The translations under genes and the position numbers were made by a program. Source: Bursaphelenchus xylophilus (lineage: Eukaryota > Nematoda > Chromadorea > Rhabditida > Aphelenchoididae). Taken from it: a DNA stretch of 64,000 bases. The DNA is taken from assembly GCA_904066235.2 (NCBI GenBank), contig CAJFCV020000001.1, forward strand, positions 1,116,001 to 1,180,000. The letters are read 5' to 3'. Under the pieces are notes generated by a model. It ran no database searches. It saw only the letters and a list, made by a program, of their open reading frames with translations, and was not told where the DNA came from. Positions 1 to 19,619 of the stretch are shown here, in pieces (positions within the stretch are counted from its first letter, which is position 1; the number at the start of each line of letters is the position of its first letter).

Positions 1-23
1 TAAATTCGTATTTTTTGTTTTAG

Positions 24-668
24 GTATCAGAGGCTGTCATCGGAGAGAAGGAAAACATTCCGCCCGAAATTGTTGTTCAGCTGCCCGCTACTCAGACTCC
101 TCAACAAGGTCAAGGGATGATATCACAGCAAAGTAAAGCAATGAATCAGACTCCTCAACAAGGGCAGGGAATGAATCCACAAACCCAAAAGGTAGCTCCT
201 CAGAATGCCCAAGGAACTCAGGATGTGTTGAAGAGAAAGTTGCCGTCCCGTGCCAATGAAGCCAAACCCGCTAAATCAATGGACCAGTAGGTTTTAAAAT
301 TTTTCTGACTTTGTTCACTCTAGGTGGGTGGTCAAGCGCTGCAAGCTCAATGTTGAGGCCAATAAAGTCGAATCCGTGACCCTGTTCCTGCGGTCAGCCA
401 TGGTCCCCTTCCTACAGCAATCAATTACGTTCCGCAACGAAGCCCTGTTCCAGCGCCTCGCGGCGTTGGTGGTCGGAGAGGTAGGTAGAAAATGTGCATA
501 TGTTTGGAAAATGAAAAAAAAAATACGCACATTTTTTACTTATAGGTCATCGAGGTGAAGGACTACAAGGCCTACAATACATATGTCACAATTTTTGGAG
601 AAGGTGATGTGAACACAACCGTCCAGTTCCAAAACTCCGCTGACGAAGAGGAAGATATGCTTATTTAA
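24..668 (+). CDS. Unknown Maverick-associated protein, 5' truncated by the window
   Basis: I read three exons, 24-286, 324-480 and 546-668, joined by introns of 37 and 65 nt with GT-AG ends. The exon lengths keep one open frame of 180 codons to a TAA at 666-668. The visible N-terminal part is low-complexity and glutamine/proline-rich, with a repeated TPQQGQGM motif. The C-terminal ~95 residues look globular and end in an acidic tail (ADEEEDMLI). I do not recognise the family. Its position before the packaging ATPase and its short introns suggest it belongs to the Maverick. A single-strand DNA-binding role is only a guess. The stop codon overlaps the TATTTAAG motif that precedes the next gene. 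Confidence 0.6.
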
Positions 669-669
669 G
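662..669 (+). promoter_or_regulatory. TATTTAAG TATA-like motif before the packaging ATPase
   Basis: TATTTAAG overlaps the stop codon of the preceding gene and lies 63 nt before the ATPase ATG. It is one of seven copies found at gene starts in the Maverick. Confidence 0.6.
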
Positions 670-732
670 CACGTCAAAAAATAATGTCACAGAAATAATC
701 CCAACCTTTTAAAATAAAAATCGTGCTGTCCG

Positions 733-1365
733 ATGGAGGTTATTGATTCGGCAGAGATAAAATTTCGTTCCCCATTCGGAATGGTGGTTTCGGGGAGTAG
801 TAGCAGTGGAAAAACAGTATTCACCATGAAGCTCATCGACCAGGCAGCATCTCTGATTTCCCCGCCTCCGCCAGACGTTTTGTATTCATATGGACAGTAC
901 GGCGACCACATTAGAGCCCTCGAACAAAAAGGAATAAAAACAATGCAAGGGGTGCCGGGCGAAGAAACGCTGCGCAATTTGAGGCCCCACTCTCTCCTTG
1001 TTCTGGATGATCAGATGAGTGCAGTGGACGAAAAGTGGTTGGTTGATGTTTTTGCGAAAAAGTCACACCACATGCTGTTCAACGTCATCTTTTTGACACA
1101 AGATGCGTTTGAGAAATCGTTGAAAACCGTGAGGATGAATGCACAGTATCTTGTCCTGCTAAAAGCTCCAAATTCCCAACTCCATGTCCGAGTTTTGGGC
1201 TCGCACTTGTTTCCTCGCAAGCGTGGATTTGTTGAGGCATACAATGACGCAACAGAGAAGCCCTACTCCTACCTGTTGATCGATCTGCATCCGCGAACCA
1301 AAGACACGCTGCGTCTTCGTGCAAACATTTTCCACGGCGAAATGACCACGATTTATCAGTTATAG
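733..1365 (+). CDS. FtsK/HerA-type DNA-packaging ATPase
   Basis: A 210-residue P-loop ATPase. Walker A is GSSSSGKT at residues 21-28. Walker B is the hydrophobic strand SLLVLDD at 87-93. The size and motif spacing fit the A32/FtsK-HerA-like packaging ATPase of Polintons and related large DNA viruses, which is expected to pump the genome into a preformed capsid. The gene has no intron. The ATG at 733 is the first usable one after the TATTTAAG motif. Its stop overlaps the stop of the opposite-strand TBP gene by 6 nt, a compact virus-like arrangement. Family assignment is secure; activity is inferred from intact motifs. Confidence 0.88.
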   Translation: MEVIDSAEIKFRSPFGMVVSGSSSSGKTVFTMKLIDQAASLISPPPPDVLYSYGQYGDHIRALEQKGIKTMQGVPGEETLRNLRPHSLLVLDDQMSAVDEKWLVDVFAKKSHHMLFNVIFLTQDAFEKSLKTVRMNAQYLVLLKAPNSQLHVRVLGSHLFPRKRGFVEAYNDATEKPYSYLLIDLHPRTKDTLRLRANIFHGEMTTIYQL

Positions 1366-1928
1366 GGTGTGACAAAATTTCTGAACTTGAGAATAAATTG
1401 GAGAAAATGATTCAAGTATTTGTTGCATTGATTTTCCTCCATTAATTACAATCTTTCCAGTCGTGAAAACCAAACAGGTAATTCCATTTTTTCTGTAGAA
1501 AAGGCCGGGAAAAATTTCGGGTTCGTAGAAAAAGTCGTGCGGACAAATATTCCTGAGGCCGTTCAAATCAATTTCACTGCCCATGTTCGAGGTTGCGACA
1601 AGGTTGACGATTTTGAATCCGTGTGGTCGCGACTCCATGTCATAATGTTGAAGTAAATCGCATAACGAGACAACGGTTTTGCGAGCCAATTTTTCCGTCT
1701 TCACTCCGGTAATAACACACTTTCCCGTCCGGAACAAGAGAACCGTAGCACCATTTAAGCGCACAATTGCTCCGTTGAACTTCGTCTTGTTGAATTTGAC
1801 TTGTTCACAGCGATTCGACAGCTCCAAAAGGTCGAGTTCGCGGCCTGCAACTTTCATAGAAAAGACAAAAAGAACCCACCGACACTTGCTACCGAAACAA
1901 TATTTCTGAGGACAATTTCGAAATCCAT
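1360..1928 (-). CDS. TATA-binding protein (TBP) homologue encoded by the Maverick
   Basis: Two exons: 1880-1928 and 1360-1844, joined by a 35-nt GT-AG intron, giving 177 residues. The protein is essentially only the TBP core, two direct repeats forming the DNA saddle, with almost no N-terminal extension. The first exon supplies the strand containing RNIVS, equivalent to the LQNIVATV strand of cellular TBP; without it the first repeat would be incomplete. The segments FNGAIVRL, VLLFRTGKCVITG, FYEPEIFPGLFYR and CLVFTTGKIVINGGK align with the TBP core. All four phenylalanines that kink TATA DNA (yeast F99, F116, F190, F207) have equivalents. It is far diverged from animal TBP, with shorter loops, so a recent capture of the host gene is unlikely. 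It has its own TATTTAAG motif 53 nt upstream. Confidence 0.88.
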
Positions 1929-1945
1929 TCGTAGATCAAAAAAAG

Positions 1946-1953
1946 TATTTAAG
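1946..1953 (+). promoter_or_regulatory. TATTTAAG motif before the gene at 1990
   Basis: TATTTAAG followed 36 nt later by the ATG at 1990. It lies inside the short divergent spacer shared with the TBP gene, so the two promoters overlap. Confidence 0.6.
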
Positions 1954-1981
1954 CAAAACACGCGCGCACAACACTACTCGA

Positions 1982-1989
1982 CTTAAATA
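1982..1989 (-). promoter_or_regulatory. TATTTAAG motif, minus strand, before the TBP gene
   Basis: The plus strand reads CTTAAATA directly before the ATG of the gene at 1990. On the minus strand this is TATTTAAG, 53 nt upstream of the TBP ATG at 1928. If TBP uses this motif, its own gene would be autoregulated. Confidence 0.55.
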
Positions 1990-2415
1990 ATGGTGCATGT
2001 AAATTTTGATCCACTAAAGCCGTTCAATTTTGATCAATTTGGAGCTGGCGCCTTTGAAGGCCGACTCTACCAGCGAGGATTTGGCAGGCAAACAGGCCGC
2101 GGACTCGGAAATGTACTCTCATCATTTTGGCGTTTTCTGTCACCCGTTCTGCGCGACATTGGAAAAGATGTGGGAAAGGAAGCTCTGCATACCAGCAGTA
2201 AAATGCTAAACAACCTGGCAGAATCCAATAGCACAAATGAAGTGAAGGGCGTCTTGAGGGAAGGACTTTCGTCTGGTGCTCGCAACATTCTTCGCAAGAC
2301 CTCGACAAGACTTGCCCAACAAAGTGGTAGTGGGGTGAAACGCCGAGGACGCCCTCCGAAACTTGGACAGCCACAAATGAAACGACAGAGAAAAGATATT
2401 TTTGGAAGTTTTTAA
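1990..2415 (+). CDS. Small basic virion-type protein (Polinton minor capsid/core candidate)
   Basis: 141 residues. The N-terminal third contains FGAGAFEGRLYQRGFGRQTGRG-like glycine- and arginine-rich sequence followed by an amphipathic segment. The C-terminus is strongly basic (KRRGRPPK with an AT-hook-like GRP core, then MKRQRK). Short proteins with a QRGxGxG motif and a basic tail recur near the capsid genes of Polintons and have been compared with adenoviral internal DNA-associated or membrane-lytic proteins. I infer a packaged minor structural or DNA-condensing role from this and from its place directly before the capsid candidate. No enzymatic motif is seen. Confidence 0.6.
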   Translation: MVHVNFDPLKPFNFDQFGAGAFEGRLYQRGFGRQTGRGLGNVLSSFWRFLSPVLRDIGKDVGKEALHTSSKMLNNLAESNSTNEVKGVLREGLSSGARNILRKTSTRLAQQSGSGVKRRGRPPKLGQPQMKRQRKDIFGSF

Positions 2416-2418
2416 ATC

Positions 2419-2426
2419 TATTTAAG
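2419..2426 (+). promoter_or_regulatory. TATTTAAG motif before the major capsid gene
   Basis: TATTTAAG placed just after the previous stop codon and 48 nt before the ATG at 2475 that appears to open the capsid gene. Confidence 0.6.
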
Positions 2427-2474
2427 GAATAAACTTTCGTGTTTTTGACTCCGTCTATAGTCACTGTTGAAAAG

Positions 2475-3819
2475 ATGAAAAAATCGACGCCCGTAGTGTG
2501 GACACGGTCAGCTCGGCCCTCGACACCTTCTCCCTTCCGCCAACAAATATTTCCGTGGGAACGTCAAGAATCAATGAAATTCTCACCCTCAACCCCATCG
2601 AAACGCCGCCATACCGTTTTCGAATCGAGTCGGGGCAGAGTTTTGTTGATCTGAGCAAGGTGGGGGAAGTTGTTTTTTTCTAAAACTGTTGATTCTGTAG
2701 GTGTATTTGGTGACTACGATGCGTCTCACGAAAATGAATGCCGAGGGAGAGGTGGAAAATATCACGGCGGCGGATCCTGTGGCACCGATTAACGCAATCG
2801 GAGCCACCTTCATCTCCAACATGAAGGTCATTCTGAATGGGCAAGAGATCTACAACTCCAACGGTCTGAACAGCTACAAGACCTATCTCGACCTCTTGTT
2901 GACCTACCCAAAAACCTCGGTTGACAGCTACTTGTCTGCGGTTGGGTGGTATCACACAAAGGCGCAGGACGACGTGAATGACCCCGGCTTCCAGGCGCGT
3001 CGGGCCCTCTTTGTGGACGGAGATGCGCAGTTTGTGACAAAAATATTCAGCCCCTTGTTCACACAATCGCGCTACCTCTGCAATCACTCCACACTAGAGT
3101 TGGAGATTGAGCCCGCAAAGGAGCAGTATTGTATTGTCGCACCGAACGCTAACGACCAAAATGCGTACAGTTTGGCAATTATCAGCTGCAAACTCTACAC
3201 AAAAACCCTGGATCTGACGGACGGCGTAGGAGTGGGCTGGAACGCCGCCCTTCTCAAGCAGCCGGCCTTATACCCGATTCGTCAGGCAGAAATGAAGCAT
3301 TTCTTTGTCTCTCCTACACAGACTGAATACGTTGCCACACTGTTCACGGAGCAAATTCCGCGGCGTATAACCATGGGACTCATCCGGAACGCCTCGTTCA
3401 GCCCAGCATCCCGGAATTCTCCATTTAAATTTGTGCATGGAAATGTTAGAAGTATTACAGTGTCCGCAAATGGCCAAAACTACCCTAGCGCAGGGTATCA
3501 GATGAATTTTGCGGAAAATCAATATATTCGCGCCTTCCACGACCTTCACGAGAATGTTGGATACGCATTTGCGAACGAAAGCATGTCCATCGACAGAAAC
3601 ATGTTCAAGAATGGCAACGCCTTGTACGTCTTCAATTTGACCACAGACCAAGAGGATGGAAATTCGTTTGATTTGATTCGTCGTGGTGTAGTGACTGTAA
3701 AGATCCAATTCACCGAAGCCGTGCCGGCCGGAGGATATGTCCTGATCGTTGCGGCCGACCACGACCGTGTTCTGATGGTTGATTCTTCACGTTCGGTGAA
3801 TACCGACCTTACCCCTTGA
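2475..3819 (+). CDS. Major capsid protein candidate (double jelly-roll type), start out of frame
   Basis: Two exons: coding to 2659, a 41-nt intron 2660-2700, then 2701-3819 ending TGA. Length is about 435 residues. Position in the gene order, size and a beta-rich sequence fit the Polinton major capsid protein, which builds hexon-like capsomers. Oddity: the capsid frame in exon 1 is open only from 2471, after a TGA at 2468-2470, and contains no ATG. The only nearby ATG (2475) is in another frame and is followed by a run of six A. Possible explanations are a one-base homopolymer change (real or sequencing error), minus-one slippage on the A run, or non-AUG initiation. The first in-frame ATG is at 2719. 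The identification rests on context more than motifs. Confidence 0.75.
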
Positions 3820-3875
3820 ACCCTTGTATTGAAAGTTCAAATAAATTTTTTTTCAACCCCTAAAAATTCAAAAGT

Positions 3876-3883
3876 TATTTAAG
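3876..3883 (+). promoter_or_regulatory. TATTTAAG motif before the four-ORF block
   Basis: TATTTAAG 27 nt before the ATG at 3911. It is the only copy of the octamer serving the following four closely packed ORFs. Confidence 0.6.
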
Positions 3884-3910
3884 CCCTAAGCCTTGGAGCT
3901 GTGAAAAAAT

Positions 3911-4243
3911 ATGGAAAACTTGGAAAATAATTTGGAATTTTTGCGCCGATTGTCAAGAGTAAAGTCCGGCGACCGCAGACGTAAACTTGTTGCACAACTG
4001 GATCGTGCCGAATTGGAGTTCCTGGTGGAGATTTGCTACAATCTGGTAAAGGGTGAAATCCCTCTGACCAAACGGCAAAAATCCAATCTGCTGCCTTTGG
4101 TGGGATTGGTCAGAGAGGTGGCGAGGAAGCGTAGCGTTGCGTCGGCACGTCGGGTGCTGCAGGAAGGAGCGGGCTTGCCACTGTCTCCCGTTTTGATCCC
4201 TGCAATTTCGTTTCTTGCCGAGCTCCTGCTTCGCCGCTCATAA
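3911..4243 (+). CDS. Conserved-type Polinton small protein, unknown function
   Basis: 110 residues, first ORF of a compact block. It begins with an acidic-amphipathic helix (residues 1-20), has a basic central region (RVKSGDRRRKLVAQ and KRQKSN), and ends with a hydrophobic, proline-containing segment (LPLSPVLIPAISFLAELLLRRS). Short proteins with this layout, basic helices then a hydrophobic C-terminus, are common in Polintons. Their role is not established; a minor virion component is plausible. The stop TAA at 4241-4243 overlaps the next ATG by one base, suggesting coupled translation. Confidence 0.6.
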   Translation: MENLENNLEFLRRLSRVKSGDRRRKLVAQLDRAELEFLVEICYNLVKGEIPLTKRQKSNLLPLVGLVREVARKRSVASARRVLQEGAGLPLSPVLIPAISFLAELLLRRS

Positions 4244-5271
4244 TGGCAATGAAGAAAATGGTCGTTGTGCCCCGGGAAATGTACGACGGACTTTTGCGCG
4301 CATCAAACCCCCAAACAGTGGATGGATTTGCCGACTATCTGATCGATGACGCCCTGGCACCAACGCGCCGGTCCTTTGAGAAGAATGCTCTGTTGAACCG
4401 CCGACTTCCGGGCTACCTCAGACATAAACGCAAATTGGAAGAGAAACCCCTTATTGTCACACTGAAAAATGGAGACGAACCCATGTGGTTGCCCAACGAC
4501 GACTTGCACACAGCGCGAGAGCGCTCTCCCCCTAGGGAAGCCGCGGAGCGGCTTGGGTTTGCGCCCCTAGGGGAGGCCGCGGAGCGGCCAGGGTTTGCGC
4601 CCCAGGGGGAGGCCGCGGAGCGGCCCGGGTTTGCGCCCTTGCGAGGGTCCGCTTCGCGGCCCGAGCTTGAGCCCCGGCGAGGGTCCGCTTCGCGGCCCGA
4701 GCTTGAGCCCCGGCGAGGGTCCGCTCCGCGGCCCGAGCTTGAGCCACGGCGAGGGTCCGCTCCGCGGCCCGAGCTTGAGTCCCCCCGCATGGTTGGCCCC
4801 ACTGTGAGGGGCCAACCATCGCCCGCCAACGACGACGCCGGAGCCACACCACGAGGCAGGCCAATGATGCGAACACCCCCAATGCCAAGGATGTCGATAC
4901 ATCGTCGTTTTCAACAGCGCCGAGACGCGTTCAACACCTTGAATCGATTAATCTCCGCCGATCCGTCAAAATTTGGTGTCGACGAAAATGGAGGCATTCT
5001 GCTTCAAGGCGGAAATTCGGTGCGGGACAGTAATTATCAGCGAATCCTCAATCGCTGGTTGGAAGAGGACCTGTCCAACAAGAGGGGAGAGAAGGCCTTC
5101 CGCGAAAAGCTTCTGGCCGATCCCGCCACCAGGCGGTTTGCCGAGACCCTGCTTCGACTCGACAGTCCTCCCACCGCACTCAAGGCCGGTCAGCGCCGAC
5201 GTGAACAAGGCGGAAGTGGATTGTTCAAGATTCGCAAATGGTCATTCCGCAAAATGCCAAAAGTCTATTAA
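4243..5271 (+). CDS. Maverick protein with N-terminal VP-type motif and 12-residue repeats
   Basis: 342 residues, start overlapping the upstream stop by one base. The N-terminus KKMVVVPREMYDGLLR resembles the opening of an uncharacterised Polinton protein family. Residues about 99-182 are seven tandem 12-residue repeats, charged and proline-containing (for example GSASRPELEPRR), encoded by a GC-rich 36-bp minisatellite. The C-terminal ~120 residues (from about 220) are folded-looking, rich in charged helices, and finish with a basic FKIRKWSFRKM tail. Function unknown; a virion or scaffold role is inferred from its neighbours. Long open frames on the opposite strand here are by-products of the repeat. 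Confidence 0.65.
   Translation: MAMKKMVVVPREMYDGLLRASNPQTVDGFADYLIDDALAPTRRSFEKNALLNRRLPGYLRHKRKLEEKPLIVTLKNGDEPMWLPNDDLHTARERSPPREAAERLGFAPLGEAAERPGFAPQGEAAERPGFAPLRGSASRPELEPRRGSASRPELEPRRGSAPRPELEPRRGSAPRPELESPRMVGPTVRGQPSPANDDAGATPRGRPMMRTPPMPRMSIHRRFQQRRDAFNTLNRLISADPSKFGVDENGGILLQGGNSVRDSNYQRILNRWLEEDLSNKRGEKAFREKLLADPATRRFAETLLRLDSPPTALKAGQRRREQGGSGLFKIRKWSFRKMPKVY
4537..4788 (+). repeat. 36-bp GC-rich coding minisatellite, seven units
   Basis: Seven in-frame 36-bp units within the 342-residue protein. The first three read EAAER-type and the last four GSAxR-type, so two sub-families were amplified in succession. GC content is clearly above the surrounding coding DNA. Confidence 0.85.
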
Positions 5272-5313
5272 AGGCCTTGATTGATTAGGGTTTTTTTGTT
5301 GGATTGATTTATT

Positions 5314-5511
5314 ATGACAGATATCGACCCAACCTCGATAATAAACAGTTTGCCCAAGTCCTGCGACAAGTACACAGACATTGTTTTTTGTGTTGTATTT
5401 GTGGGATTTTTGCTCATGTTTTTTGGACTTGTGCTCTTCAAAGAGTGGAGACGCCATGAACACAAACCAGCTGGACAACCACCTACGCAGTCTGCTGCCT
5501 CACGTTTCTAG
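5314..5511 (+). CDS. Small single-pass membrane protein
   Basis: 65 residues with one strongly hydrophobic segment at about 24-43 (IVFCVVFVGFLLMFFGLVLF), preceded by an acidic N-terminus and followed by a basic KEWRRHEHK stretch, so the C-terminus is probably cytosolic. It begins 42 nt after the previous stop and overlaps the protease start by 56 nt in another frame. No homologue is recognised. In a virus-like element it could be a minor membrane or release protein, but that is speculation. Coding status rests on its tight fit in the block. Confidence 0.5.
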   Translation: MTDIDPTSIINSLPKSCDKYTDIVFCVVFVGFLLMFFGLVLFKEWRRHEHKPAGQPPTQSAASRF

Positions 5512-5881
5512 TGGAGTGTACAGCATTGACACAATTCCCTCAATTCTCCCCAAACCGCATGCCTGCATTATCAATCTGGACCCGAGCCACGAACAAGGAA
5601 GTCATTGGGTCGCCGTTTTTTCGCACTTTTCCAAAAGCCTGTATTTTGACAGTTTTGGCTGTGACCCTCCACCGGAGATTGGGCAACGATTTGCGCCCCT
5701 TCACGCATGGTCCACTCCCGTCCAAGGGCTTTTCTCCGACTGTTGTGGCCACATGTGCCTGATATTTCTGTTTATGGCTTCCAGAAATGCCTCTCTGCCT
5801 TCGATTCGACGAACCCTCGCATTGATCAGTGACACGGACGCCAAGAAAATTATAAACAAAAAAATTTTATTCACCGTCTAA
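5456..5881 (+). CDS. Adenain/Ulp1-type maturation cysteine protease
   Basis: 141 residues from the ATG at 5456; the frame is open further upstream, but this ATG gives the usual length. The catalytic set of the adenovirus-protease clan is visible: His50 in GSHWVAVF, Asp65 in YFDSFG, Gln90 in PVQGLF and Cys97 in DCCGHMC. In Polintons this enzyme is thought to cleave capsid precursors during maturation. It overlaps the membrane ORF upstream and shares its last 15 nt with the end of the convergent polymerase gene. It appears intact. Confidence 0.88.
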   Translation: MNTNQLDNHLRSLLPHVSSGVYSIDTIPSILPKPHACIINLDPSHEQGSHWVAVFSHFSKSLYFDSFGCDPPPEIGQRFAPLHAWSTPVQGLFSDCCGHMCLIFLFMASRNASLPSIRRTLALISDTDAKKIINKKILFTV

Positions 5882-8800
5882 ATCATAACCAAAGGGATAA
5901 ACTCGTAAATCATGAACATAGCCTTTTGTGTTGCATGCCTTGTAGACCTTGGTCGAATGTACAGTACGCACTTTTTGCTCCCGCATTGAAGGCCGGAACT
6001 GCACGGTTGGAATCGGCTGTTGATGATGTCGTTGGTTGTCGAGAACCATTTCCTTGAATCGATCGAATGCCAGACATTGTTTGGCCTGGCGGGTCATCGT
6101 AAAACCTCTGATGCAGCTTTTGTAGCTGATTTCTTCGGGGTTGGTCTTGCTGCGAAGCTTGAGGAAGTATTGTTTCGGGCCTCCGGCGACAAACTCCAAA
6201 ATTTCATGGTCGGGGAACTCGTTCTTCCATTCGCCCAAGAAGGACCCTGTTTGAATTGGGGGCTGGCCTCGGTGGTGTCGAATTAATAGAGAATCCAAAA
6301 AGTAAAGATTTTTTCACATTCTTGGACTTACCCGTGTCGTGGTACAAGACGACGGCCCCTGCCTTTTCACATTGCCTCATCCCCTCGTAGAGGTAGAGGC
6401 GTGCCGCTGCTGTCGTCCATAATGGGACAAAGATATTATTAAAGTCCAAGTCCTGCACATATTCCTCCTTGGGTTTGAGGAAGAACATCATCGTTGTTTC
6501 GTTGATGATCGTTGTCCGCAATACCTGATGACTATCATCCATCATCAGACGAACATAGTCCTCTGGGCTCTTGCATATCTCGATCTGAAAAAAACGAGAA
6601 ACAAAAGAAAAAATTAGGACTTACGCGAGTCAATCGACTCCTCATCGAAAACTTCCCCCAGAAACTATTGAGGATAATCTTGGAGTTGAAACGCATTGCT
6701 GCGTTCAACGCCAAGTCCTCCTTCCTCATCAGGAAGCCATAGCGGCGCTGGGCTTCCGCGATGAACTCCTCAATCTGTTCATCGTTTCGGCCTTCCGGGC
6801 CGCTTGCCTCCATCTTCTTCTTGTAGTATCGGAGCACGGGGGCTCTGAACAGTTCCGAGTCCATTTTCTCGAACTCGATCTTCTCCATGATGTGAGTGAC
6901 TCTGTAGCCCGCGTCGTCCAGGGCCACAGCCAACTCCAAACTGGTGACGGTGGTGATGAAGCCTCGCTCCTCATCCGAGTGCTCACAACGAGCCTCATGC
7001 TTTCCCACGAACGAACGGCCAGCAAACTTGTTCGCACACTTGTAGCACAACGGGTAGATTAAAGTCTTCTGAATTCGGGTGGGAATCACGGGGTAGTAGC
7101 ATTTTCGGGGAGGGATGACAAAGACCTTGTAGATTCCATGCATTTGGCCGCAGTCGGCGAACATTTGGGCTGCGCTTCGCCAGTCGACGGCTCTGTTCAA
7201 GGGGATCACTTTAACTCTTCCGGTGGGCATTGCCTTGTTCACAAGGGTCGAGGGATAAAGCGAGTTGCTGTCGTAGTAGCCGATCTCGTATCGATCATTG
7301 GAGTCGGCCCACAATGACAGTGCGGCTGTTCTTCCTCCGGCAAAGGCTTCACGGGGATGAGCCGGTGCGGCATTCTGAATTTCGTCTTCAAAAAATTCCT
7401 GCATTTCTTCATTCTCCAACAACTCAGCCTTGATCTCGCATTCCCAGTATTCCACCACATCATATCCGGCGTTACGGAGCAGTTGGACTCTCTTTTCATT
7501 TTGTTTTCGTGTATCTTGGCGAGTCTTTCCATTCGGCAAAACCGTATCCGCGTTTGGGACACATTTCTCGCATCCGTGCCAAACGCAACCATTGTATTCG
7601 ATGATCAAGTTTTTGCCGCCGTCAATTCCTTCAACATATCCGTCTACCGAAAATCGACGTTGTTTCCTCTTCTCAGGATCCCATACCCGGACCGTTTTCT
7701 CTCCATTCGGGCAGTCTCTGAACTGTAGGTTGGAAAAGTATTTTTTGCGAATCCATCGCAAAAATTTCAAGCCCGTCCTACTTTGGTTGATTTTTGAGCC
7801 AAATGCGGATTCGTTTTGAATAATAAGTGTGTTCTCCGGCAAATCAGACATTCGGAAATCTCTCATCACGCTGCCCGCCAAAGTGCAGCTGTAATACCAC
7901 ACATCGTCGGTGGGATGACCACGGATTATCCGGCATTCACGCCTGTGACTAGCAATCGCGTTGGCCAAAACTTTCACGTCAATGATACAGTATTTTTTGA
8001 GTTCCTCTTTAAAATTGAAGAGTTTGCCACTGTTCTCTTGATACCATTGATCGAATTTTTGTTTTTTGGCGTCTTCCATGTCGTCATATCTAAACGACAG
8101 AATAAACCACTTTCTCAAAAACTCACTGATATGCCGACTTTGGAGGCAAAGGTCCTTCATATTCGTAATTGCATTCCTTGTTCCAGCAGTGGGGGAAGTC
8201 GCCCTTTCCTTCCACACCCAACTCTTCAGGCAGTGGATAGACTTGCGGGAGTTTGGCCAACTTCATTGGAAGATGGTTTAAAGAGTCGACCAGTATAATC
8301 TTTCCAAATTTTCTACCCCCATTTACGGTAATTTTGTACATTTTTTCGCCGTTGGCAATAATACTCGGCCGACGATGCGCTATAACAAACAAGATGCATT
8401 TTTTATAGAAATTACTTACAATTATCCTTGAAAATGGCTCTCAACAATAGGGTGAAATCAAAACGCCCTCCATTATGGGCGACCGCTAGTGTTGTCTCCC
8501 CTTTGGCTGTTATCTCCTTCAGATATTTCCACATTTCCATTACAGGATCAACGGTTGCTAAAACGACTTGTCAACCCGTGGAGAAACTTACAGTCTTCTG
8601 GCGTTGAATACCATTGAATGCTATTGGGACAGGCACGACAGGATCCATCCGATTTCATCCACTCTCCGGAATTCATGCGCTCATTGCACATAGTCATTAA
8701 GGCGGCAAAATTGACACAATGGTCAAAGACTCCATCACCAATTTCATCTTCTTGGCGTGTTTCAAAATCAAACGCGACAACTTTGTAGACGGGCTCCTCT

Positions 8801-10466
8801 TCAGGGGGCTCAAGCGGTTTAATGAAACAATCACCGTCTTCTTTGTGGTATGAGTAGCACTTGAAGCAGTAGACGTAGCCACATTGATGTTCCTCATGTC
8901 TCTGGGCGTAGCGTTTCTTACACTTTTGGCAGGTTGCGTATTGACGACACATTCGCCTCTGGTGAACCACATAACAATCATTGTTCGGGAAGAATCCATT
9001 ACATTGGTCACAATATTTAGCTCTTCCAACATGAACACAAGGACCTTGTCCAACTCTTCCGCAAAAACAACACTTATCCACACATGAAGCTCGGTGCTCT
9101 TGTTGATGTGAGTATGTGCTCAAACATTTATAACACACATTTCTGGCTCCAAAGAATTTTGTCGGCTTTATGATCGGATCAAAATGCTCACGTTCCTCAT
9201 CAAAGAAAATTGGAATTATAGTCTTGGCTTGAATTCCAACTCTTCGGCTAACGCTTGGATACAGGGGAAGGTCGTGAAAGTTCTCGGTTGCGTGAACAAC
9301 CACTTGAAATGGCGCCAAATCTCGGTATTGATTGTTCAGGTAGGCCTCAATTCGCATGATCACCAATTGAAACGCATCTCTCTCAGGATTTTTGATTTTG
9401 GTGGCCTCCATCATTGCTTGGTAGTAGTTTTTGTATGTGTCGCTGGCTTTGTTTTGGTCGGCAATTCTTTGCATCATTCGGGCGGGTCGAGGCATGTTTG
9501 GAAGTTTATAAAGCAATCCACAAATGATGGAAAGTGGCAGACATTCTCCTTTCGTGTTTACCAAATGATAAAGCCCATTTGCAAAGCCACCGACACCTTG
9601 CCTGTCGGCTCCTCCGCTAATCGTTGAACAGACTGTGCATTTGATGGTAATGGGCTTTTCGAACAAATTTGCGGTTTTTGACGACTGTTGCACTTTTTCG
9701 AAACGGGTGAAAATTCTGCGTACATCAAAATCGTTTTCTGGCACAAACCCTGAATAAATTCCGCTCTCGAGGGCCTCCGACTCAATGCCCAAATTGACAT
9801 GTGTTATTCTACGGTTGGGTCGTGCTTCAAGAGCTAAAAGCAACAATAAAAAATTTTTTTTTTTTTTTTTAGGAACTTACTTTTTTCAATTGTGTCGTCA
9901 ACCACGCTTTGCAAGAGACGGACAAGTTCTTCTTCATAGTCGGCGGCGTCTGCATTTGCTTCCACAGTGACAACCCCTTGATAGCGGCTTTCAGGGAAGT
10001 AGTTACTCGAATGTAGGCTTGATTGCAATCGTCGAAATATTCCTTGGCCCTGTTGTGCTCGTCCTTCCAACGACGGTGAAGCCTGCTCGGGGTCGTGGTC
10101 TCGGTGGCCCTCTGGAGTGATGACTCGTCGCCTGACACGAGCTCCTTGCCTCTCTTGAGAACGACTCGCCCGAACTGGTATTTCTGGTTGACTTAAAAAA
10201 TCCCACTCCTCGAGACATTCTTGTAATTCTCTCAGTGTTGGGTTTAATCGCGTTTCCGCATCATCAAAGTCTTCAGGGGTGGGGCTATAGATTTCCATTT
10301 CTTCTTCAACTTGTAGCTCATACATTGGTTCCTCATGACTATAAAGAAAAGATGTTTCACCATTCGCATAGTAATTTGGCCTTGTAAAATGCGATTGCCG
10401 GATCACGTGGGGCTGGAGGTCAAGTCGCGCTTGTTTAGGAGGTGCAGGTAAAAAAGCGCTCGACAT
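5867..10466 (-). CDS. Protein-primed family B DNA polymerase (pPolB)
   Basis: I resolve seven exons: 9881-10466, 8592-9833, 8420-8557, 8127-8379, 6625-8089, 6332-6584 and 5867-6294, separated by introns of 34-47 nt. Together they keep one frame of 1454 residues. Visible motifs: Exo I FDFET (near 8775), Exo II AHNGGRFDF (near 8475), Exo III YCIIDV (near 7990), Pol A YDSNSLYP (near 7265) and Pol B ILNSFWGK (near 6660). Motif C, YxDTDS, is split by the last intron. A cysteine-rich, zinc-binding-like region precedes the exonuclease. Oddity: the last intron (6295-6331) starts GTAAGT but ends TTTTTGG instead of TTTTTAG, so motif C is joined only if a GG acceptor is used. No TATTTAAG motif lies upstream. 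Confidence 0.92.
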
Positions 10467-10488
10467 GTTGTTTTATTCCTAAAAATGT

Positions 10489-10496
10489 TATTTAAG
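10489..10496 (+). promoter_or_regulatory. TATTTAAG motif before the minor capsid gene
   Basis: TATTTAAG 26 nt before the ATG at 10523, within the spacer divergent from the polymerase. It faces the capsid gene only. Confidence 0.6.
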
Positions 10497-10522
10497 AAAA
10501 GCAATTGTTTACGTTTTCAAAA

Positions 10523-11509
10523 ATGTCGGCGTCAACGTTTCACGTAATTTGTCCGAGTTCGGATAAATCATTTGACGATAATCTGGCATGTGATTACAAA
10601 ATCCTGCTTCCTAAACCTTTGAGTTTTGACGACGATTATGTATGTGGACTACAAAGCATAACGTTTCCCTACACTTGGCCTTCACTTGGTGCTCTCGAAA
10701 ATCAATTTATTCGACTCTATACCCACGACAACAAAGTATTAAAACTTATCATCCCCAAAGGCACCTACTCGGACGTTGAAACCCTAATCGATGCCCTCAA
10801 CCAGTACATAAAAACCGCCCTGCCTGACTATAGAGGAAACTTTCGGAAGAGAAGAAACGTGGAGGAAAAAAGTGATGCCATGGCAAAATCAGGCGCTTTA
10901 AATGCTGTTGCCACAACGGACGCGGCGTCGCCAATGCCTCAGGCACCTACAGCGGAGAAGGACGCACCACCGCCACCCGTGGAGGTAAACGTTCCCGTTG
11001 TGCCAGACACTCCGCCACCACCACCTCCTCCGCCATCAGGATTCGGCCGCGGGATAATCGAAGACGACTTGATAATAAAATTCAATCAATCTACAAAGCG
11101 TGTCGAAGTTGGAATTAATCATGAATCAATTCAAAGAATCTCATTTTCTCCTCAACTAGGCTATACACTCGGGTTTGATCCGAGGGCAGTAATCATGAAC
11201 GGAGCCAATGCAATTTACACACCCGACCTGAGTGGAGGAATTTCGCAACTTTACGTCTACGCCGAAGGTCTTACAGAAAACATAATTGTTGGTCGGCATC
11301 TCACACCTCTTCTTCGAATTGTTACTGTAAAAGGAAAGCCGGGACAAATGTGCGAGATGATTTATGACTCTCCCCTCTTCCTAAACGTACCCCGAAGATC
11401 GGTCAGCATGTTGCATATACAAATCAGAACAATGGATGGAAAACTTGTGCCTTTTGAGTACGGAAACGTCACGTGTACCTTGTTATTTAAGCGAAAAATC
11501 CCTTTTTAA
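10523..11509 (+). CDS. Minor capsid (penton-type) protein candidate
   Basis: 328 residues from the ATG at 10523, chosen because it follows the TATTTAAG motif closely and starts MSASTF before a conserved-looking block. The N-terminal part (FHVICPSS then a KILLPKPLSFDDDYVCGLQSITFPYTW stretch) has the pattern of Polinton minor capsid proteins, where a beta-strand domain begins soon after the start. A proline-rich linker occupies roughly residues 145-172. The C-terminal half is beta-rich and ends ALLFKRK-like (CTLLFKRKIPF). Expected role: pentamer at capsid vertices. No intron. Its 3' end contains the TATTTAAG motif of the integrase. Confidence 0.7.
   Translation: MSASTFHVICPSSDKSFDDNLACDYKILLPKPLSFDDDYVCGLQSITFPYTWPSLGALENQFIRLYTHDNKVLKLIIPKGTYSDVETLIDALNQYIKTALPDYRGNFRKRRNVEEKSDAMAKSGALNAVATTDAASPMPQAPTAEKDAPPPPVEVNVPVVPDTPPPPPPPPSGFGRGIIEDDLIIKFNQSTKRVEVGINHESIQRISFSPQLGYTLGFDPRAVIMNGANAIYTPDLSGGISQLYVYAEGLTENIIVGRHLTPLLRIVTVKGKPGQMCEMIYDSPLFLNVPRRSVSMLHIQIRTMDGKLVPFEYGNVTCTLLFKRKIPF
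11484..11491 (+). promoter_or_regulatory. TATTTAAG motif before the integrase
   Basis: The octamer lies inside the last codons of the minor capsid gene (LLFK region), 28 nt before the integrase ATG at 11520. Confidence 0.55.
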
Positions 11510-11519
11510 ACAAATAAAC

Positions 11520-12434
11520 ATGGCTTTGAAAATTTATCATGATTTAAACAATCCATCATGCTATACGGGACCCTCCACTATTACGCGAATTACCGGTGGT
11601 AGATATGAAGATGTCTATAAGCAGTTGGCCAGTGATGAATCCTACAATCTACATAAACCCTTGATTCGAAGATTCAAACGCCTGAAGACAATTCCTCGTG
11701 GCCTTTTCACCGATCTTCAGGCTGACGTTGCCGATTTTCGACGCCTTTCGCGCTTCAACAAAGGTTACAAATATTGCCTGTTATGTGTGGATGTGATGTC
11801 TCGCAAATTCTTTGCATGCCCACTAAAACAAAAAGGTGCAATGGATATCAAAGAAGCGTTCGTAAAAATATTTGAGGAAATGCCCCATCCACCCGAAGTT
11901 GTGTTCACCGACAACGGAAAGGAATTCAAGAATTCTACGCTCAAATCTTATTTCACAAAAGAGGGAACTGAAATTTATCACAGTGGCAATATCGAAACAA
12001 AGGCCAGTATTGCTGAACGAGGAATACGAACCGTTAAACAAAGACTGTATAAATACATGACTGCACATAATTCAAAACGTTGGATTGATGCTCTTCCCCT
12101 CATCATCAAAGCAATCAATCAATCCCTCAATCGAACCCTTGGCATGCGACCAATTGACGTGACAAATGAAAACTGGTATGACCTTTGGAAAAGACTATAT
12201 AGTCGACTGCCGAAAAAAGAAATGCCCCCTCTTATTGTGCCCGGAGATCACGTCCGCATCTCACTTCCTCCTCAGGCCTTCAAAAAGGGATACACTGTCA
12301 ATTTCACGAAAGAGATTTTCCAAGTTCATCAAGTCCTGAATTCGACTCCGCGCACATTCGTGCTCAAGGATCAAGAAGGAGAGATTTTGGAGGGGCGTTT
12401 CTACCTTAACGAACTCTCGCTTGTTACACAATAA
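11520..12434 (+). CDS. Retroviral-type DD35E integrase (Maverick integrase)
   Basis: 304 residues. The catalytic triad is visible as Asp69 (LQADVADF), Asp131 (VVFTDNGKEF) and Glu166 (ASIAERGIRTVK), with exactly 35 residues between the second Asp and the Glu. The C-terminal ~75 residues (from VPGDHVRIS) form a small beta-rich domain that in this family contacts DNA or chromatin. It catalyses insertion of the element's ends. The start was set at 11520 because it follows the promoter-like octamer by 28 nt and the frame upstream overlaps the capsid gene. The frame is intact. As usual in Polintons the gene sits next to an element end. Confidence 0.92.
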   Translation: MALKIYHDLNNPSCYTGPSTITRITGGRYEDVYKQLASDESYNLHKPLIRRFKRLKTIPRGLFTDLQADVADFRRLSRFNKGYKYCLLCVDVMSRKFFACPLKQKGAMDIKEAFVKIFEEMPHPPEVVFTDNGKEFKNSTLKSYFTKEGTEIYHSGNIETKASIAERGIRTVKQRLYKYMTAHNSKRWIDALPLIIKAINQSLNRTLGMRPIDVTNENWYDLWKRLYSRLPKKEMPPLIVPGDHVRISLPPQAFKKGYTVNFTKEIFQVHQVLNSTPRTFVLKDQEGEILEGRFYLNELSLVTQ

Positions 12435-13714
12435 TTTTTTTAATCAGAATGAAGAGAATAACAGTTCAAATAAAGCATTGACAGTTTTCCTTTTTTTTTA
12501 ATATTTAATTACCGTATAGTCGAAGGCGGAACCTGATTTTTTTTCGCTTTGGTCACTCATTTTTTCTAGAATTTTCTCCATTGGATAAACGCGATCAAAG
12601 TACTCTTACAAGAAGAGAGATGGGTACCCCACACAACCGCGCGCGAGACGGCCTCAAAAGACGACTGACCGCACGAAGAGGGAGAGACCCCACGTTGAAG
12701 TCATCAATCAACATCATAGAGTCATCAGCTCAAAATAGCCTAAAGTCATTTAGCTTCAGTTGCACTGTTCTGTGCGGTTGACTGCTAAGGATTACGGTAT
12801 TTTCGTCTTTTCTTACTGTACATTCCTTTCGTTCGTAAAACCACATTACGTCGGTCATAAATCGTAAAACTTTTGCAAGTGTCTGCAAATTATTTTAAAC
12901 TTTTTGCAAGTTTTTTGAAACTTTGCAAAACATTTTTACAACAATATTTATATTGCGCATTTTGTTTTTTTGAAATACTTGGCGTCCCTTTAATGTTTAA
13001 TATTTCCGGAAACAAAATATTTTCCGCATAACTGCAAAAAGTTGCACATCTTCTTGTTGAAAACTCGGAATTGCTGGAAAAATAATTTTATTTCAACTAT
13101 TAATGATTTTATCACAAGCTCCGCCCACTCTCCTTCCTCTACACACTCTCTCACCGTCTGACTCTCTCCCTCCACATTCTCTTGCCTCTCTCGCTGTCTG
13201 ACTCTCCTCCTCTCAACACTCTCTCGCCTCTCTCACTGTCTGACTCTCCTCCTTTCCCCTACTCTATCACTTCCGGTTCCCCCCTGGCTCATTTTTGTAG
13301 CCTATAACTACTCATCGAAACATAATCACATTACTTTTTGAAGAAGGCAAAAGTCATGTTACTTATAGTTCCAGTTTGTTTGTTATGTATTGTGCCCAAG
13401 GACGATTGTTTCGAAAATTGCGGCTCGGCCCTCTAAGTCTATTCTACTAATAAATCGCTGGTATTAGCTAACTAAGAGCCCTAAAAAATTTAAAAATCGA
13501 AGAAACGGCTGTCAATTGGGCCCACCTTTACCATTACTTTTTACTACAAAAAATGTCCCTTTTGTTTCCTTAGGTTTAATACACACTACAACCTATCCTT
13601 TTTTGCTAGTGAGTTCAGTTTGCCGGCCGTTACAAATTTGCTTGTGGTTGGTCACAAGCGGCTTTAAACCATGTCTACTCGGGGGTTGGGTCCGCTGAGG
13701 GCACATAGGCGTGA
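12435..13714. other. Gene-free stretch after the Maverick integrase
   Basis: No convincing gene. AT-rich sequence that should contain the right Maverick terminal repeat, but without the left copy I cannot delimit it. A purine-rich stretch at 12600-12690 and the pyrimidine repeat at 13115-13270 are the only obvious structures. Confidence 0.5.
13115..13270. repeat. Pyrimidine-rich imperfect tandem repeat
   Basis: Repeated CTCTCGCCTCTCTC and CTGTCTGACTCTCCTCC blocks with a period of roughly 50 bp, about three units. It could be part of a Maverick terminal repeat, which often contain tandem repeats, but this is untested. Confidence 0.6.
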
Positions 13715-14319: not shown

Positions 14320-16986
14320 ATGCTAATATCTGCGGAAGAGCTGCCCTCCCCCCAACTTCTCAGCCTGTATCATTGCTTTTGCAGCGGAATTTTTGTGCTG
14401 ACAACAGGTGTGGTGATGTTCACGCTGGCAGTTATGGCAATGTGTAAGTTTGAAGGCAACTGACGAAGCAAACTTTTGCTCACGCTTTGCGCGCGGAGCT
14501 GAGATATTGGACAATAGTTGCGGCCGAGATTGCACGCAAAACGCGGTAAGCGTCTCACAGGAAAAAACACTTTTTGGCCATATCTGGTTCCTGCGGAAAA
14601 AACTGATTTTTTATACAGCCCCTTTGGTAGGAAGAAGTATAAAACTTTTCGTGCAAAAACTCTCAAAAAGAGTAAAATTTTTGCCAAGTTTCGACCTAGT
14701 ATATAGCCTAACAAAGATGTGGCCAAAAAATTCTTTCTTCGCCTTTCGCGTACTCTCTCGGCTGCAAAAAAAAATCTGCGCATTGCATTTTGAGCATGTT
14801 TCCTTTGATAATGAAAAGGTTCCAAAAATCCTAATCAACCTTTATTTTTAGCGTCCACAAATTCCATGAAGGTCTATCATTACTACTTGGTCTCCACAAT
14901 TATTTGGTAAGCCCAAGGGGCCAGTACTGCCATCAGTCTGTCGGGAAAATAATGAGTTGAATGTTGCTGCGCCCAGCGCGTCTCGGAAATGAAAAGCAAC
15001 TTGATTTTTCCACGACACATTTCATTTTCTCGGCGGCGATGCGTTTTCAATGCGACAGAGTGGTCATTATTTTCCCGACACATTGATCCTTCCCACTGAC
15101 AGCACTGCAAACTTTTTCAGGTCCTACCTCTGCGACGTGACGTTTAGCGCGATGGGAATGCTATCGCTTCAACCCCTGCCATGCCTTGCGTTTCAAGGAG
15201 TACTAGGGCAATTTATCCACTCACGACCTTTGATTTTCTCCTCCGCCGCAATGTTGATTGGCTGTGGGCGGTGTGCGGCGTTGATTCTGCAATGCTGCTA
15301 TCGAATCTTCCAACCATCCCCGCCGCAGATGATGTTCTACCAGTTCTTCTCCAAGATTCTGAACGATCACTTCGTCTACACCTCGTACATATTGATGTTC
15401 GTGCTGTACGCGGTTATTTGGGTGAGTTATGGGGTCGATTACATTTTTTGTATCATCAAGCGAAGGATACGGGGGAGGCTGTTTATGTCTGAGTGGATTG
15501 TATTTTAACTGTAAGGTTTTCTGAATGGTATTACTAAATCTTGAACCTTTTTTGCTGTACATATTACTGAGATTGCCTACAAGTGGAGGCCTCCAAGAAC
15601 AACGCTCGGGGCTTGTTGAGATTTTGCACACATTTTGCGGATGGGTCACGCATCAATTCTTGAAAATTTTAGCTCGCACTTTGCAGGTAAGGGCCAGATA
15701 TCAACAATCTTTGCGGCCGAGAGGTAGACAAAACGTGGAGAGTGGTCAGAGAGAAAAAACACTTTTTTGGCCAGTTTTTTTGCCAATTTTGTGCGGAGAA
15801 AGTTTTTTTTTGGGAAACATAACCTTCTGCAGTTGACATAGGGACTCCAAAAAATCTTTTTTTGGCCGATTTCTTGGCCAGTTTGGCATTATTTTCGATC
15901 AAAGTCCGAATTTTCTGAGACGAGTTTTGATCACTAGAAACTAGAAGTAAAACTTCAAAATAATTTTTCCGGTAAATCTTGTGACGAAAAGGCAACATGA
16001 AGAGCTCGAAGAGCGCTCTCTCAGTTCCACATGTCCTCTACCTTGACGACAAAATGACGTCCAAAAAGGTGCGCTAATTTAGCAGTCGGAAAACCACGTT
16101 TTTACCAGCTGTTTCTTCTTGTCTATTCTATGACACCATCCTAAAAATTTCCTAAATAATCAATGCTATTCTCTGTTCTCGTTTTTTGCCTGATCCCGTG
16201 ACAAAAAACGTACCATTTTGCATCCGGGAAGCATCAAAAATGTGGCAAAATGCTTCCCTCTCCAAGTGAAAAAAAAACATTGTTTTGAAGGGCGTTTTCC
16301 CTCACAAAAAGAACAGGCTTTTGAAATCGGAGTTTTTCCACTTTTAGATGAAGGTATTTTGCCACATTTTTTGATACCTCCCGGATGCAAGGTGGTACGT
16401 TTTTTGCCACTTGATCATGTCCCCCACTGTATAACAACCTTTTCAGGGTCCAATGTGGCTGTGGTTTCCCGACCAAAAACTCCAAAAGCAACTCCTTCTG
16501 GAAGCCGACCCAAATATTGTGCAAATCTACGACCGTCTCCCCAACATTGTTTGCATTTCGTACGGGACCAGTTTCGGGACCGCTATCTGGACACCGCTCG
16601 GGTTTGTGATCGCCGTACCGACCATCGTGTTGTGGCTGGTCTACAAGGTGTACAAGCAAATCCAAAGCGGGAATGCGCCCGAACGCACGGTCCATCTGCA
16701 CATGATGCTCCTGAAATCGCTTGTAGCGCAACTTGTTGTTCTTGGCGTCTTTCTTTGTCTTCCTGCCTACATTTTACTGCTGCTCCCTTCGGCTGGCGTT
16801 CGAGGGGCGCCAACCATCTCCATTTGTTGTATTATCGTCTACTTCATGGAGACCAACGTGGAATGTCTGATGTTGGTGTGGTTTGTGAAGCCGTACAGGG
16901 AATGTTGCCTGCAAATATGGAGGTACGGAATGGGTCCAAAGGGACGGTCGGTGATTCAAGTGCAGTCGGGCACGTCGTTGAATTAG
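14320..16986 (+). CDS. Srh/Sri-like serpentine chemoreceptor (gene A)
   Basis: Four exons: 14320-14443, 14852-14906, 15121-15421 and 16447-16986; 339 residues. Exon 1 opens MLISAEELP and carries the first membrane helix. Exon 2 has the SMKVYHYYLV signature. Exon 3 has LQPLPCLAF and the CCYRIF block. The last exon begins GPMWLWFPDQ and contains TVHLHMMLLKSL before the final helices and VKPYR. This two-part pattern fits the Str superfamily (Srh/Sri) of nematode 7TM chemoreceptors, expected in sensory cilia; the ligand is unknown. Exon 1 was found by homology to the neighbouring genes. Intron 2 holds a MITE, intron 1 a palindromic repeat, intron 3 two further repeats. All splice sites are canonical and the frame is intact. 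Confidence 0.8.
14490..14790. repeat. Palindromic repeat with GCGGCCGAGA and ACACTTTTTGGCCA motifs
   Basis: Inverted arms (GCGGCCGAGATTGCACGCAA near 14520, its complement near 14760) around a weak centre, in intron 1 of gene A. Related sequence recurs at 15615-15800, 20735-20850 and 60590-60720. Confidence 0.6.
14932..15087. mobile_element. TCAGTCTG MITE, copy 1
   Basis: Ends TCAGTCTGTCGGGAAAATAA and the inverted counterpart, with a worn right end, filling most of intron 2 of chemoreceptor gene A. Confidence 0.85.
15600..16000. repeat. Repeat of the TTTTAGCTCGCxCTTTGC family
   Basis: Contains TTTTAGCTCGCACTTTGCAG, GCGGCCGAGAGG and ACACTTTTTTGGCCAG blocks also seen at 14490-14790 and 60540-60955. 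It lies in intron 3 of gene A. Confidence 0.6.
16199..16415. repeat. Palindromic element with CATCCGGGA arms
   Basis: Inverted arms: ACGTACCATTTTGCATCCGG at the left and its complement at the right, with internal ATGTGGCAAAAT copies. It resembles a repeat family I associate with Caenorhabditis, from memory only. Located in intron 3 of gene A. Confidence 0.75.
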
Positions 16987-16989
16987 CAT

Positions 16990-17918: not shown

Positions 17919-18080
17919 TATCAGTCTGCCGGGAAAGTAACGTGGATTTGTCGTGTGTTGATATTGCCCATCATCGGTTTTGCGATAGCTAGGAGATCTG
18001 GTGCACGACTGGCAATTGTGAGACGCGAGGCAAAGCATTTTGGCGCGAAAAATCCACATTATTTTCCCGACCGACTGATA
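17919..18080. mobile_element. TCAGTCTG MITE, copy 2 (promoter of gene B)
   Basis: TA-flanked copy with inverted ends, 40 bp before the gene B ATG. The paralogous position upstream of gene C lacks it. Confidence 0.9.
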
Positions 18081-18119
18081 TAGTATGCGTCAAGTCCTGA
18101 AGGCTTATTGAGCCGTTAA

Positions 18120-19343: not shown

Positions 19344-19370
19344 TCGTTATTTCGCTTGCAATATCACTTT

Positions 19371-19515: not shown

Positions 19516-19619
19516 GCCACGTGCGATGTCACGGTCCGAGCAGAATTTGGAGGCCGCAAAAAATTCCCATGGCTTCTTGCCGCGAGTATTAGATCCATTT
19601 CCCGGTGCCTATTGTTAAT

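What the first reader, a model, noticed from the sequence alone, without database searches (positions are those of the whole stretch)
1360..1928. A virus-like Maverick transposon that encodes its own TATA-binding protein
Seen: a two-exon, 177-residue gene inside the Maverick, sharing 6 bp with the ATPase gene, with both TBP repeats, RNIVS and FKIVNLVAT strands, and phenylalanines at the four positions that kink TATA DNA. Known: TBP-like proteins occur in some large eukaryotic DNA viruses; I do not know of a TBP described in a Maverick/Polinton. Inference: the element directs its own promoter recognition. The strong divergence argues against a recent host-gene capture.
Basis: partly seen in the sequence, partly recalled or inferred. 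Interest (0 to 1): 0.92.

Follow-up and report, generated by a model that had tools for sequence, protein, structure and literature searches.

The report
Transposon with its own TATA-binding protein
A virus-like Maverick transposon in a nematode genome carries a gene for a divergent TATA-binding-protein homologue, and the same eight-letter TATA-like box stands just upstream of most of its genes, so the element likely points the host's RNA polymerase at its own genes.

Summary
The gene at 1928-1360 (-) is real: two exons, 177 aa, two Pfam TBP repeats (129 bits), confident TBP fold, four DNA-kinking Phe kept. It lies between the 615-bp inverted repeats of a Maverick with a 6-bp target duplication; a near-identical copy sits on another contig. 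A second Maverick family in this genome (ATPase 53% identical) also encodes a TBP, in both copies that have an ATPase. The two Maverick TBPs share an intron position that neither host TBP has, and the second family keeps an intron that both host TBPs have, pointing to an old capture from an animal TBP gene. New here: the box TATTTAAG stands 34-71 bp upstream of 7 of 11 tested gene starts, the TBP gene included, and none of the 11 has TATAWA, while the other families mostly use TATAWA boxes. The protein keeps both TFIIB-contact glutamates, has lost basic residues contacted by host regulators, and carries two of the three TBPm3 altered-specificity substitutions. A third family lacks TBP but encodes a TFIIB-like protein. 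Likely mechanism: an element-encoded TBP that recognises the element's own boxes and recruits host TFIIB and Pol II. Expression and DNA binding are untested.

The parts
1360..1844 (-). TBP gene, exon 2 (both TBP repeats except the first 17 residues)
   Evidence: AlphaFold of 1842-1363: pLDDT 91.0
1845..1879 (-). predicted TBP intron, 35 bp, GT-AG, phase 1 after codon 16
   Evidence: same position and phase as intron 1 of the second-family TBP
1880..1928 (-). TBP gene, exon 1 with ATG at 1928
1982..1989 (-). TATTTAAG box of the TBP gene itself, 61 bp upstream of its ATG
1946..1953 (+). TATTTAAG box of the basic virion-protein gene, 44 bp upstream of ATG 1990; faces the TBP box
662..669 (+). TATTTAAG box, 71 bp upstream of the ATPase ATG
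2419..2426 (+). TATTTAAG box upstream of the capsid gene, whose start is not resolved in this copy
3876..3883 (+). TATTTAAG box, 35 bp upstream of ATG 3911
10489..10496 (+). TATTTAAG box, 34 bp upstream of ATG 10523; in reverse orientation also close upstream of the polymerase ATG 10466
11484..11491 (+). TATTTAAG box, 36 bp upstream of the integrase ATG 11520
733..1365 (+). A32-like packaging ATPase
   Evidence: Pox_A32 18.1 bits, under cut-off 22.8; conserved in four families
1990..2415 (+). basic virion protein (minor capsid candidate, label inferred)
   Evidence: conserved in four families
2701..3819 (+). main exon of the double-jelly-roll major capsid protein
   Evidence: DJR-like 13.9 bits, under cut-off 27; conserved in four families
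5456..5881 (+). adenain-like protease
   Evidence: Peptidase_C5 17.3 bits, under cut-off 21.3
5867..10466 (-). DNA polymerase B region, several ORFs or exons, limits inferred
   Evidence: DNA_pol_B_2 82.1 bits in the ORF 6538-8262; the other two ORFs scanned there had no Pfam match
11520..12434 (+). rve integrase
   Evidence: 34.9 bits, cut-off 32.6
12698..13312 (.). right terminal inverted repeat (left one at L050:7050-7664, outside the window)
13313..13318 (.). right target-site duplication CATCGA

Best explanation
The gene encodes a TATA-binding-protein homologue of a Maverick transposon that likely binds the TATTTAAG boxes in front of the element's own genes and would recruit host TFIIB and RNA polymerase II to them. 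Shown by sequence: a two-repeat TBP with four Phe, both TFIIB-contact Glu kept, basic residues of the host-regulator patch lost, two TBPm3-type substitutions, and one private box type before most tested genes of the element, the TBP gene included. Inferred: the protein is made, binds this box, prefers it to TATAWA, and escapes TFIIA/Mot1/TAF1-type control. Its own box makes self-regulation likely, and the facing boxes at 1946 and 1982 could make capsid and TBP transcription exclude each other. Inferred origin: one old capture of an animal TBP gene with an intron, before the two TBP-bearing families split.
For: TBP profile 129.1 bits. Model with pLDDT 91.0; the 44 Foldseek PDB hits at E<=0.001 are, by title, TBP or complexes that contain it. 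Inside TIR/TSD bounds; open frame in both copies, with one silent difference between them. A second family has a TBP in both copies that have an ATPase. Box: 7 in the window's element against 1 in the other 50,688 bases, 0.3 expected in the element. 7 of 11 tested starts carry TATTTAAG and 0 of 11 TATAWA; the other families, one copy each, show 0/10, 1/8, 0/7 TATTTAAG and 6/10, 4/8, 5/7 TATAWA (M2, F3, F4). E284/E286 kept, R235/K236/R239/K243 replaced, I194F, V203T and T215N present. TBPm3 substitutions from PMC4466886; roles of E284/E286/R235/R239 from PMC7221094.
Against: No binding, expression or splicing data. TATTTAAG departs from TATAWA only at position 4, A/T and T/A look nearly alike to TBP (PMC10005294), and wild-type Arabidopsis TBP has been crystallised on a T(-27) variant box (1qn7), so host TBP may serve these boxes. 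The no-TBP family F3 has one TATTTAAG box too. M2 has a TBP but ordinary boxes, and its TBP gene has neither box within 85 bp. TBPm3 also needs the Leu to Val change, which W lacks, and is known for TGTA boxes, not TATTTAAG. The human mutants R235E and R239S abolish basal transcription, so losing that patch could mean loss of function. The box was noticed by eye before it was counted. The tree does not place W, and the two M2 copies show no purifying selection on TBP.
Confidence: 0.62

Rival explanations
1. Cargo: the TBP is a host gene carried along, as nematode Mavericks carry proteases and kinases, without a role in the element's transcription.
For: Nematode Mavericks do transfer cargo genes (PMC10680173, passage); the second-family TBP shares an intron with both host TBPs.
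Against: Open frame in two diverged families, about 33% identical to host TBP, embedded among virion genes; in the window's family its gene uses the same box as the virion genes.
Confidence: 0.15
2. Decoy: a TBP that binds TFIIB but not host regulators, or that occupies host TATA boxes, and so damps host transcription.
For: TFIIB glutamates kept while regulator-contact residues are lost.
Against: Does not explain the uniform private box of the element.
Confidence: 0.12
3. The boxes are ordinary TATA variants served by host TBP, and the element TBP works only at particular times or tissues, as TRF-type TBP paralogues do.
For: Families F3 and F4 use TATAWA boxes and no TBP was found in them, so host TBP evidently can serve Mavericks; F3 has one TATTTAAG box.
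Against: 0 of 11 tested W starts have TATAWA; base-contact positions of W TBP are changed.
Confidence: 0.3
4. A decaying host TBP pseudogene caught in the element.
For: Long branch in the tree; between the two M2 copies 2 of the 3 coding differences in TBP are amino-acid changes.
Against: Open frames with splice sites in the two W and two M2 copies, fold and key residues kept.
Confidence: 0.03

Closest known systems
Cellular TBP (TFIID TATA-binding subunit, Pfam PF00352)
   Same: two repeats, saddle fold, four Phe, E284/E286
   Different: no N-terminal domain, about a third identical, basic helix residues lost, I194F/V203T/T215N, a 2-residue deletion in the first repeat shared with the second Maverick TBP
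TBP-like proteins of large DNA viruses (PMC7221094, PMC10132985, PMC12917281, passages and one section read) and of endogenous viral elements of a green alga without DJR capsid genes (PMC10675990, passage)
   Same: virus-like element with its own TBP; regulator-contact residues not conserved
   Different: PMC7221094 reports that viruses with a TBP-like protein mostly also encode TFIIB and that the TFIIB glutamates are variable; here the glutamates are kept and no TFIIB match lies in the element. I made no separate search for RNA polymerase genes
Maverick/Polinton transposons of nematodes
   Same: TIR, 6-bp duplication, DNA polymerase B, integrase, ATPase, protease, capsid genes
   Different: a general transcription factor gene; none turned up in the listings or in the passages opened
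TBPm3 laboratory mutant (PMC4466886, passages read)
   Same: Ile to Phe and Val to Thr at the same two positions
   Different: Leu to Val is absent; TBPm3 reads TGTA boxes, whereas here the box is TATTTAAG; an extra Thr to Asn
TRF/TLF paralogues of animals
   Same: specialised TBP used for a gene set
   Different: the host TLF-like gene is separate (L040); TRF2 has lost the intercalating Phe (PMC10005294, passage), W keeps all four

Membership tests
TBP (PF00352) | profile match over the curated cut-off in both repeats | tested here: met
   129.1 bits, 2 stretches, cut-off 22.9
TBP (PF00352) | saddle fold | tested here: met
   pLDDT 91.0, pTM 0.76 without the first 17 residues; the 44 PDB hits at E<=0.001 are by title TBP or complexes that contain it
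TBP (PF00352) | four intercalating Phe and two central Asn | tested here: met
   (list of contact positions recalled from the TBP-DNA structures)
TBP (PF00352) | TFIIB-contact glutamates E284/E286 | tested here: met
   role from PMC7221094
TBP (PF00352) | binds and bends a TATA box | not testable with these tools
   needs a binding assay
Maverick/Polinton | long TIRs and 6-bp target duplication | tested here: met
   TIR 615 bp at 100%; TSD CATCGA (C1 copy) and TATACT (C5 copy)
Maverick/Polinton | DNA polymerase B and rve integrase | tested here: met
   82.1 and 34.9 bits, both over cut-off
Maverick/Polinton | A32-type ATPase, adenain-like protease, DJR capsid | tested here: inconclusive
   all three matched below Pfam cut-offs, although conserved between the families
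Viral TBP-TFIIB orthogonal pair | TFIIB homologue in the same element | tested here: not met
   PF00382 search of the whole genome: 11 matches of 14 candidates, none in the W or M2 elements
TLF/TRF2 | loss of an intercalating Phe | tested here: not met
   W keeps all four

The most novel reading that the evidence does not exclude
Nematode Mavericks have captured the core of Pol II initiation piece by piece: two families carry a TBP and a third carries a TFIIB, and in the window's family the captured TBP has been retuned, by natural versions of altered-specificity substitutions, to a private TATTTAAG promoter box that replaced TATAWA throughout the element, giving a transposon its own promoter code run on the host polymerase.
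Probability: 0.4. Interest if true: 0.92.

Novelty: new variant of a known kind. Interest (0 to 1): 0.82.

Why it matters
Virus-encoded TBPs are described mostly in large DNA viruses that also bring a TFIIB (PMC7221094). A transposon of about 14 kb with a TBP that looks fitted for host TFIIB would be a minimal, testable case of a mobile element steering promoter choice of Pol II, with a natural experiment beside it: related elements in the same genome with another TBP, with a TFIIB, or with neither. It would also show how TBP base-contact residues and promoter boxes change together in nature.

Tried and rejected
Viral contigs (IMG/VR): scans with a TBP alignment, with protein P0005 and with an ATPase alignment gave 0 confirmed loci, so no outside Maverick with TBP could be shown. 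Protein database: 5 hits of 32 candidates for W and 14 of 37 for M2, none recognisable as a Maverick protein; sensitivity is limited to shared 5-residue words.

A weak hit (7.4 bits) of the TBP profile in family F3 falls on an ORF that appears to be the C-terminal part of its DNA polymerase and was dropped.

Phylogeny: W and M2 are long branches; a W+M2 clade is neither shown nor rejected (p-AU 0.285 and 0.313). The first tree wrongly took in three TFIIB rows; it was rebuilt without them and without the host TLF, with P0009 and P0019 left out as near-duplicates, and three times more with one row dropped. The four-family test from five proteins favours W+M2 (RELL 0.79), but the AU test rejects none of the three trees (0.83, 0.233, 0.058); the F3 protease in it was read in a wrong frame and only part of the M2 capsid was used. 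dN/dS of W against M2 failed: no silent rate could be computed.

No paper holds both 'TATA-binding protein' and TATTTAAG.

Full report
What is there. The window is a stretch of contig 1 of a 78.25-Mb, 8-contig genome. It looks like a nematode: of five neighbouring ORFs scanned, three match chemoreceptor families (Srh, Sri, Srd, Str) over their cut-offs; that these families are nematode ones is recalled. Bases 1-13312 belong to one Maverick element (family W) whose left end lies outside the window at L050:7050. Its inverted repeats are 615 bp and identical and it is flanked by the 6-bp duplication CATCGA. A second copy, on contig 5, has its own duplication TATACT and is 99.8% identical over the first 4.8 kb of the window.

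The gene. On the minus strand, ATG at 1928, a 35-bp GT-AG intron, stop ending at 1360: 177 aa. Other GT-AG pairs also keep the frame open; the chosen one gives the best continuity of the first TBP repeat. Pfam TBP 129.1 bits, E 5.8e-38, two stretches. Among solved structures the best match is a human TBP chain, 90.8 bits. AlphaFold of the exon-2 part has pLDDT 91.0, and the 44 Foldseek PDB hits with E<=0.001 are by title TBP or complexes that contain it. The gene shares 6 bp with the ATPase ORF, tail to tail.

More copies. A PF00352 search of the whole genome scored 15 candidates and found 14 matches. They resolve into two host TBPs (L038, L039), a TLF-like gene (L040), two copies of the window gene, and two copies of a different TBP gene on contigs 2 and 6. 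The last two lie in a second Maverick family, here M2. Its C6 copy has TIRs of about 680 bp and the duplication TGTCTC, and its ATPase is 53% identical to the window's. The M2 TBP is 174 aa in three exons, 150.6 bits. Two further families, F3 (7 copies by ATPase) and F4 (1 copy), have no TBP by the genome search or by hmmsearch without filters of the loci L041-L048. Polymerase or capsid pieces elsewhere, one of them M2-like (C6:434351), coincide with no TBP match.

Origin. W and M2 share the position and phase of their first intron (phase 1, after codon 16), which neither host TBP core has. M2's second intron has the same position and phase as an intron of both host TBPs, inside the Arg (Lys in host TBP2) codon after the first repeat. 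W and M2 also share a two-residue deletion and Asp at position 239. This favours one capture of an animal TBP gene, old enough for about 34% identity between them. The protein tree is too poor to test it. No other animal genome was available to check how widespread the introns are.

Promoter boxes. TATTTAAG occurs 7 times in the window's part of the element and once in the remaining 50,688 bases; 0.3 (largest 3 of 300 runs) are expected in the element from a first-order Markov model. In the window as a whole 8 are seen, 2.56 expected, and 1 of 100 shuffles reached 8. All 7 lie within 90 bp upstream of a gene start on the same strand if the capsid start is put at 2475, which is not resolved; 3.7% of positions would qualify. 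Without that start it is 6 of 7. An eighth box lies in the left part outside the window. Of 11 starts tested (the one outside the window included, the capsid not) 7 have TATTTAAG and 0 have TATAWA within 85 bp; in one copy of each other family the counts are 0 and 6 of 10 (M2), 1 and 4 of 8 (F3), 0 and 5 of 7 (F4). So the four families share a TATA-type architecture, and the window's family has changed its letters. The starts 4243, 5314 and 5456 have no box, the polymerase start has one only in reverse orientation, and the M2 TBP gene has neither kind of box.

Residues. Against human and host TBP: Phe at yeast positions 99, 116, 190 and 207 and Asn at 69 and 159 are kept. E284 and E286, which contact TFIIB (PMC7221094, passages and section 12 read), are kept in both Maverick TBPs. 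R235, K236, R239 and K243 are V, S, D, H in W and Q, S, D, Y in M2. That paper counts R235 and R239 among the N-lobe signature residues, a basic cluster contacted by TFIIA, TAF1, BTAF1/Mot1 and Brf factors (K236 and K243 are my addition), and reports that human R235E and R239S abolish basal transcription, which counts against a simple gain for the element. W has Ile to Phe and Val to Thr at the two positions that, with a third, make the TBPm3 mutant work on TGTA boxes (PMC4466886, passages); M2 has the Val to Thr and an Asn at the Ile position. W alone has Thr to Asn at yeast 215. I recall, without a call, that this Thr contacts the central base pairs; position 4, a central one, is where TATTTAAG differs from TATAWA.

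Mechanism. The best reading is an element TBP that marks the element's own promoters and hands over to host TFIIB and Pol II. Steps shown: gene, predicted fold, conserved interface residues, private boxes. Steps inferred: expression, binding, preference, escape from host regulators, feedback. PMC7221094 concludes that viral TBPs are unlikely to use host TFIIB and mostly come with a viral TFIIB; W and M2 differ on both counts, since the glutamates are kept and no TFIIB match lies in either element.

An unexpected neighbour. The TFIIB search found, besides matches taken to be host genes on C2 and C5, one match beside the ATPase of each of the 7 F3 copies (25.9-28.0 bits, cut-off 23.6). The gene model was made for the C1 copy only: the spliced product is 238 aa with a zinc ribbon (32.2 bits) and TFIIB repeats (70.6 bits); best solved relative human TFIIB, E 2.1e-30; 3 protein-database hits of 252 candidates, 25-28% identical. 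That copy's TIRs and duplication TATGTG enclose it. So three of the four families examined carry a general transcription factor gene, and F3 has TFIIB without TBP.

Known or new. In the held library I found no paper tying a TBP to a Maverick or Polinton. TATA-binding protein with Maverick and Polinton: 1 paper, a review of vertebrate TE-derived sequences, listing only. TBP with Polinton: 3 papers, of which I opened passages of one, about a giant-virus TBP; the other two were not opened. TFIIB with Polinton: 8 papers, passages of three opened. PMC11071308, on eukaryotic DJR-capsid viruses, holds neither TATA nor TBP in its main text. TATA-binding proteins are reported sporadically in endogenous viral elements of a green alga in which no DJR capsid genes were found (PMC10675990, passage), and often in mirusviruses (PMC10132985, passages). 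A nematode Polinton paper, PMC10748475, is not held and supplementary files could not be read, so an earlier mention cannot be excluded. Nematode Mavericks with cargo genes are known (PMC10680173, passage).

Noticed in passing
L049:2317 onward (+), G000 C1 about 214816; matches beside 6 more F3 copies: A Maverick family without TBP encodes a 238-aa TFIIB-like protein (zinc ribbon plus TFIIB repeats), divergent in orientation from a conserved element gene.
   Followed up: partly
L037:3709-4056 (-): The M2 Maverick encodes a small protein resembling a PAZ domain (27.1 bits, just under the cut-off 28.8), next to its TBP gene; a small-RNA-binding role is only a guess.
   Followed up: partly
L039, G000 C5:5872039-5872568: The host has a second TBP paralogue besides the TBP on C3 and a TLF-like gene on C1.
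   Followed up: partly
window 4535-4784: A tandem repeat inside the gene starting at 4243 seems to differ in length between the two copies of the element.
   Followed up: no
window 2419-2700: The start of the capsid gene is not resolved in the window copy; described only.
   Followed up: no
window 16435-21412: A cluster of ORFs matching Srh-type chemoreceptors beside the element.
   Followed up: no
window 58401-58519, 58932-59050 (+), 63614-63732 (-): Three 5S rRNA genes.
   Followed up: no
G000 C4:106919-108364, C5:7793058-7794503, C6:434351-435890, C2:9047171-9048039: Further Maverick polymerase or capsid pieces, some with stops; the C6 piece resembles M2, the rest were not assigned.
   Followed up: no
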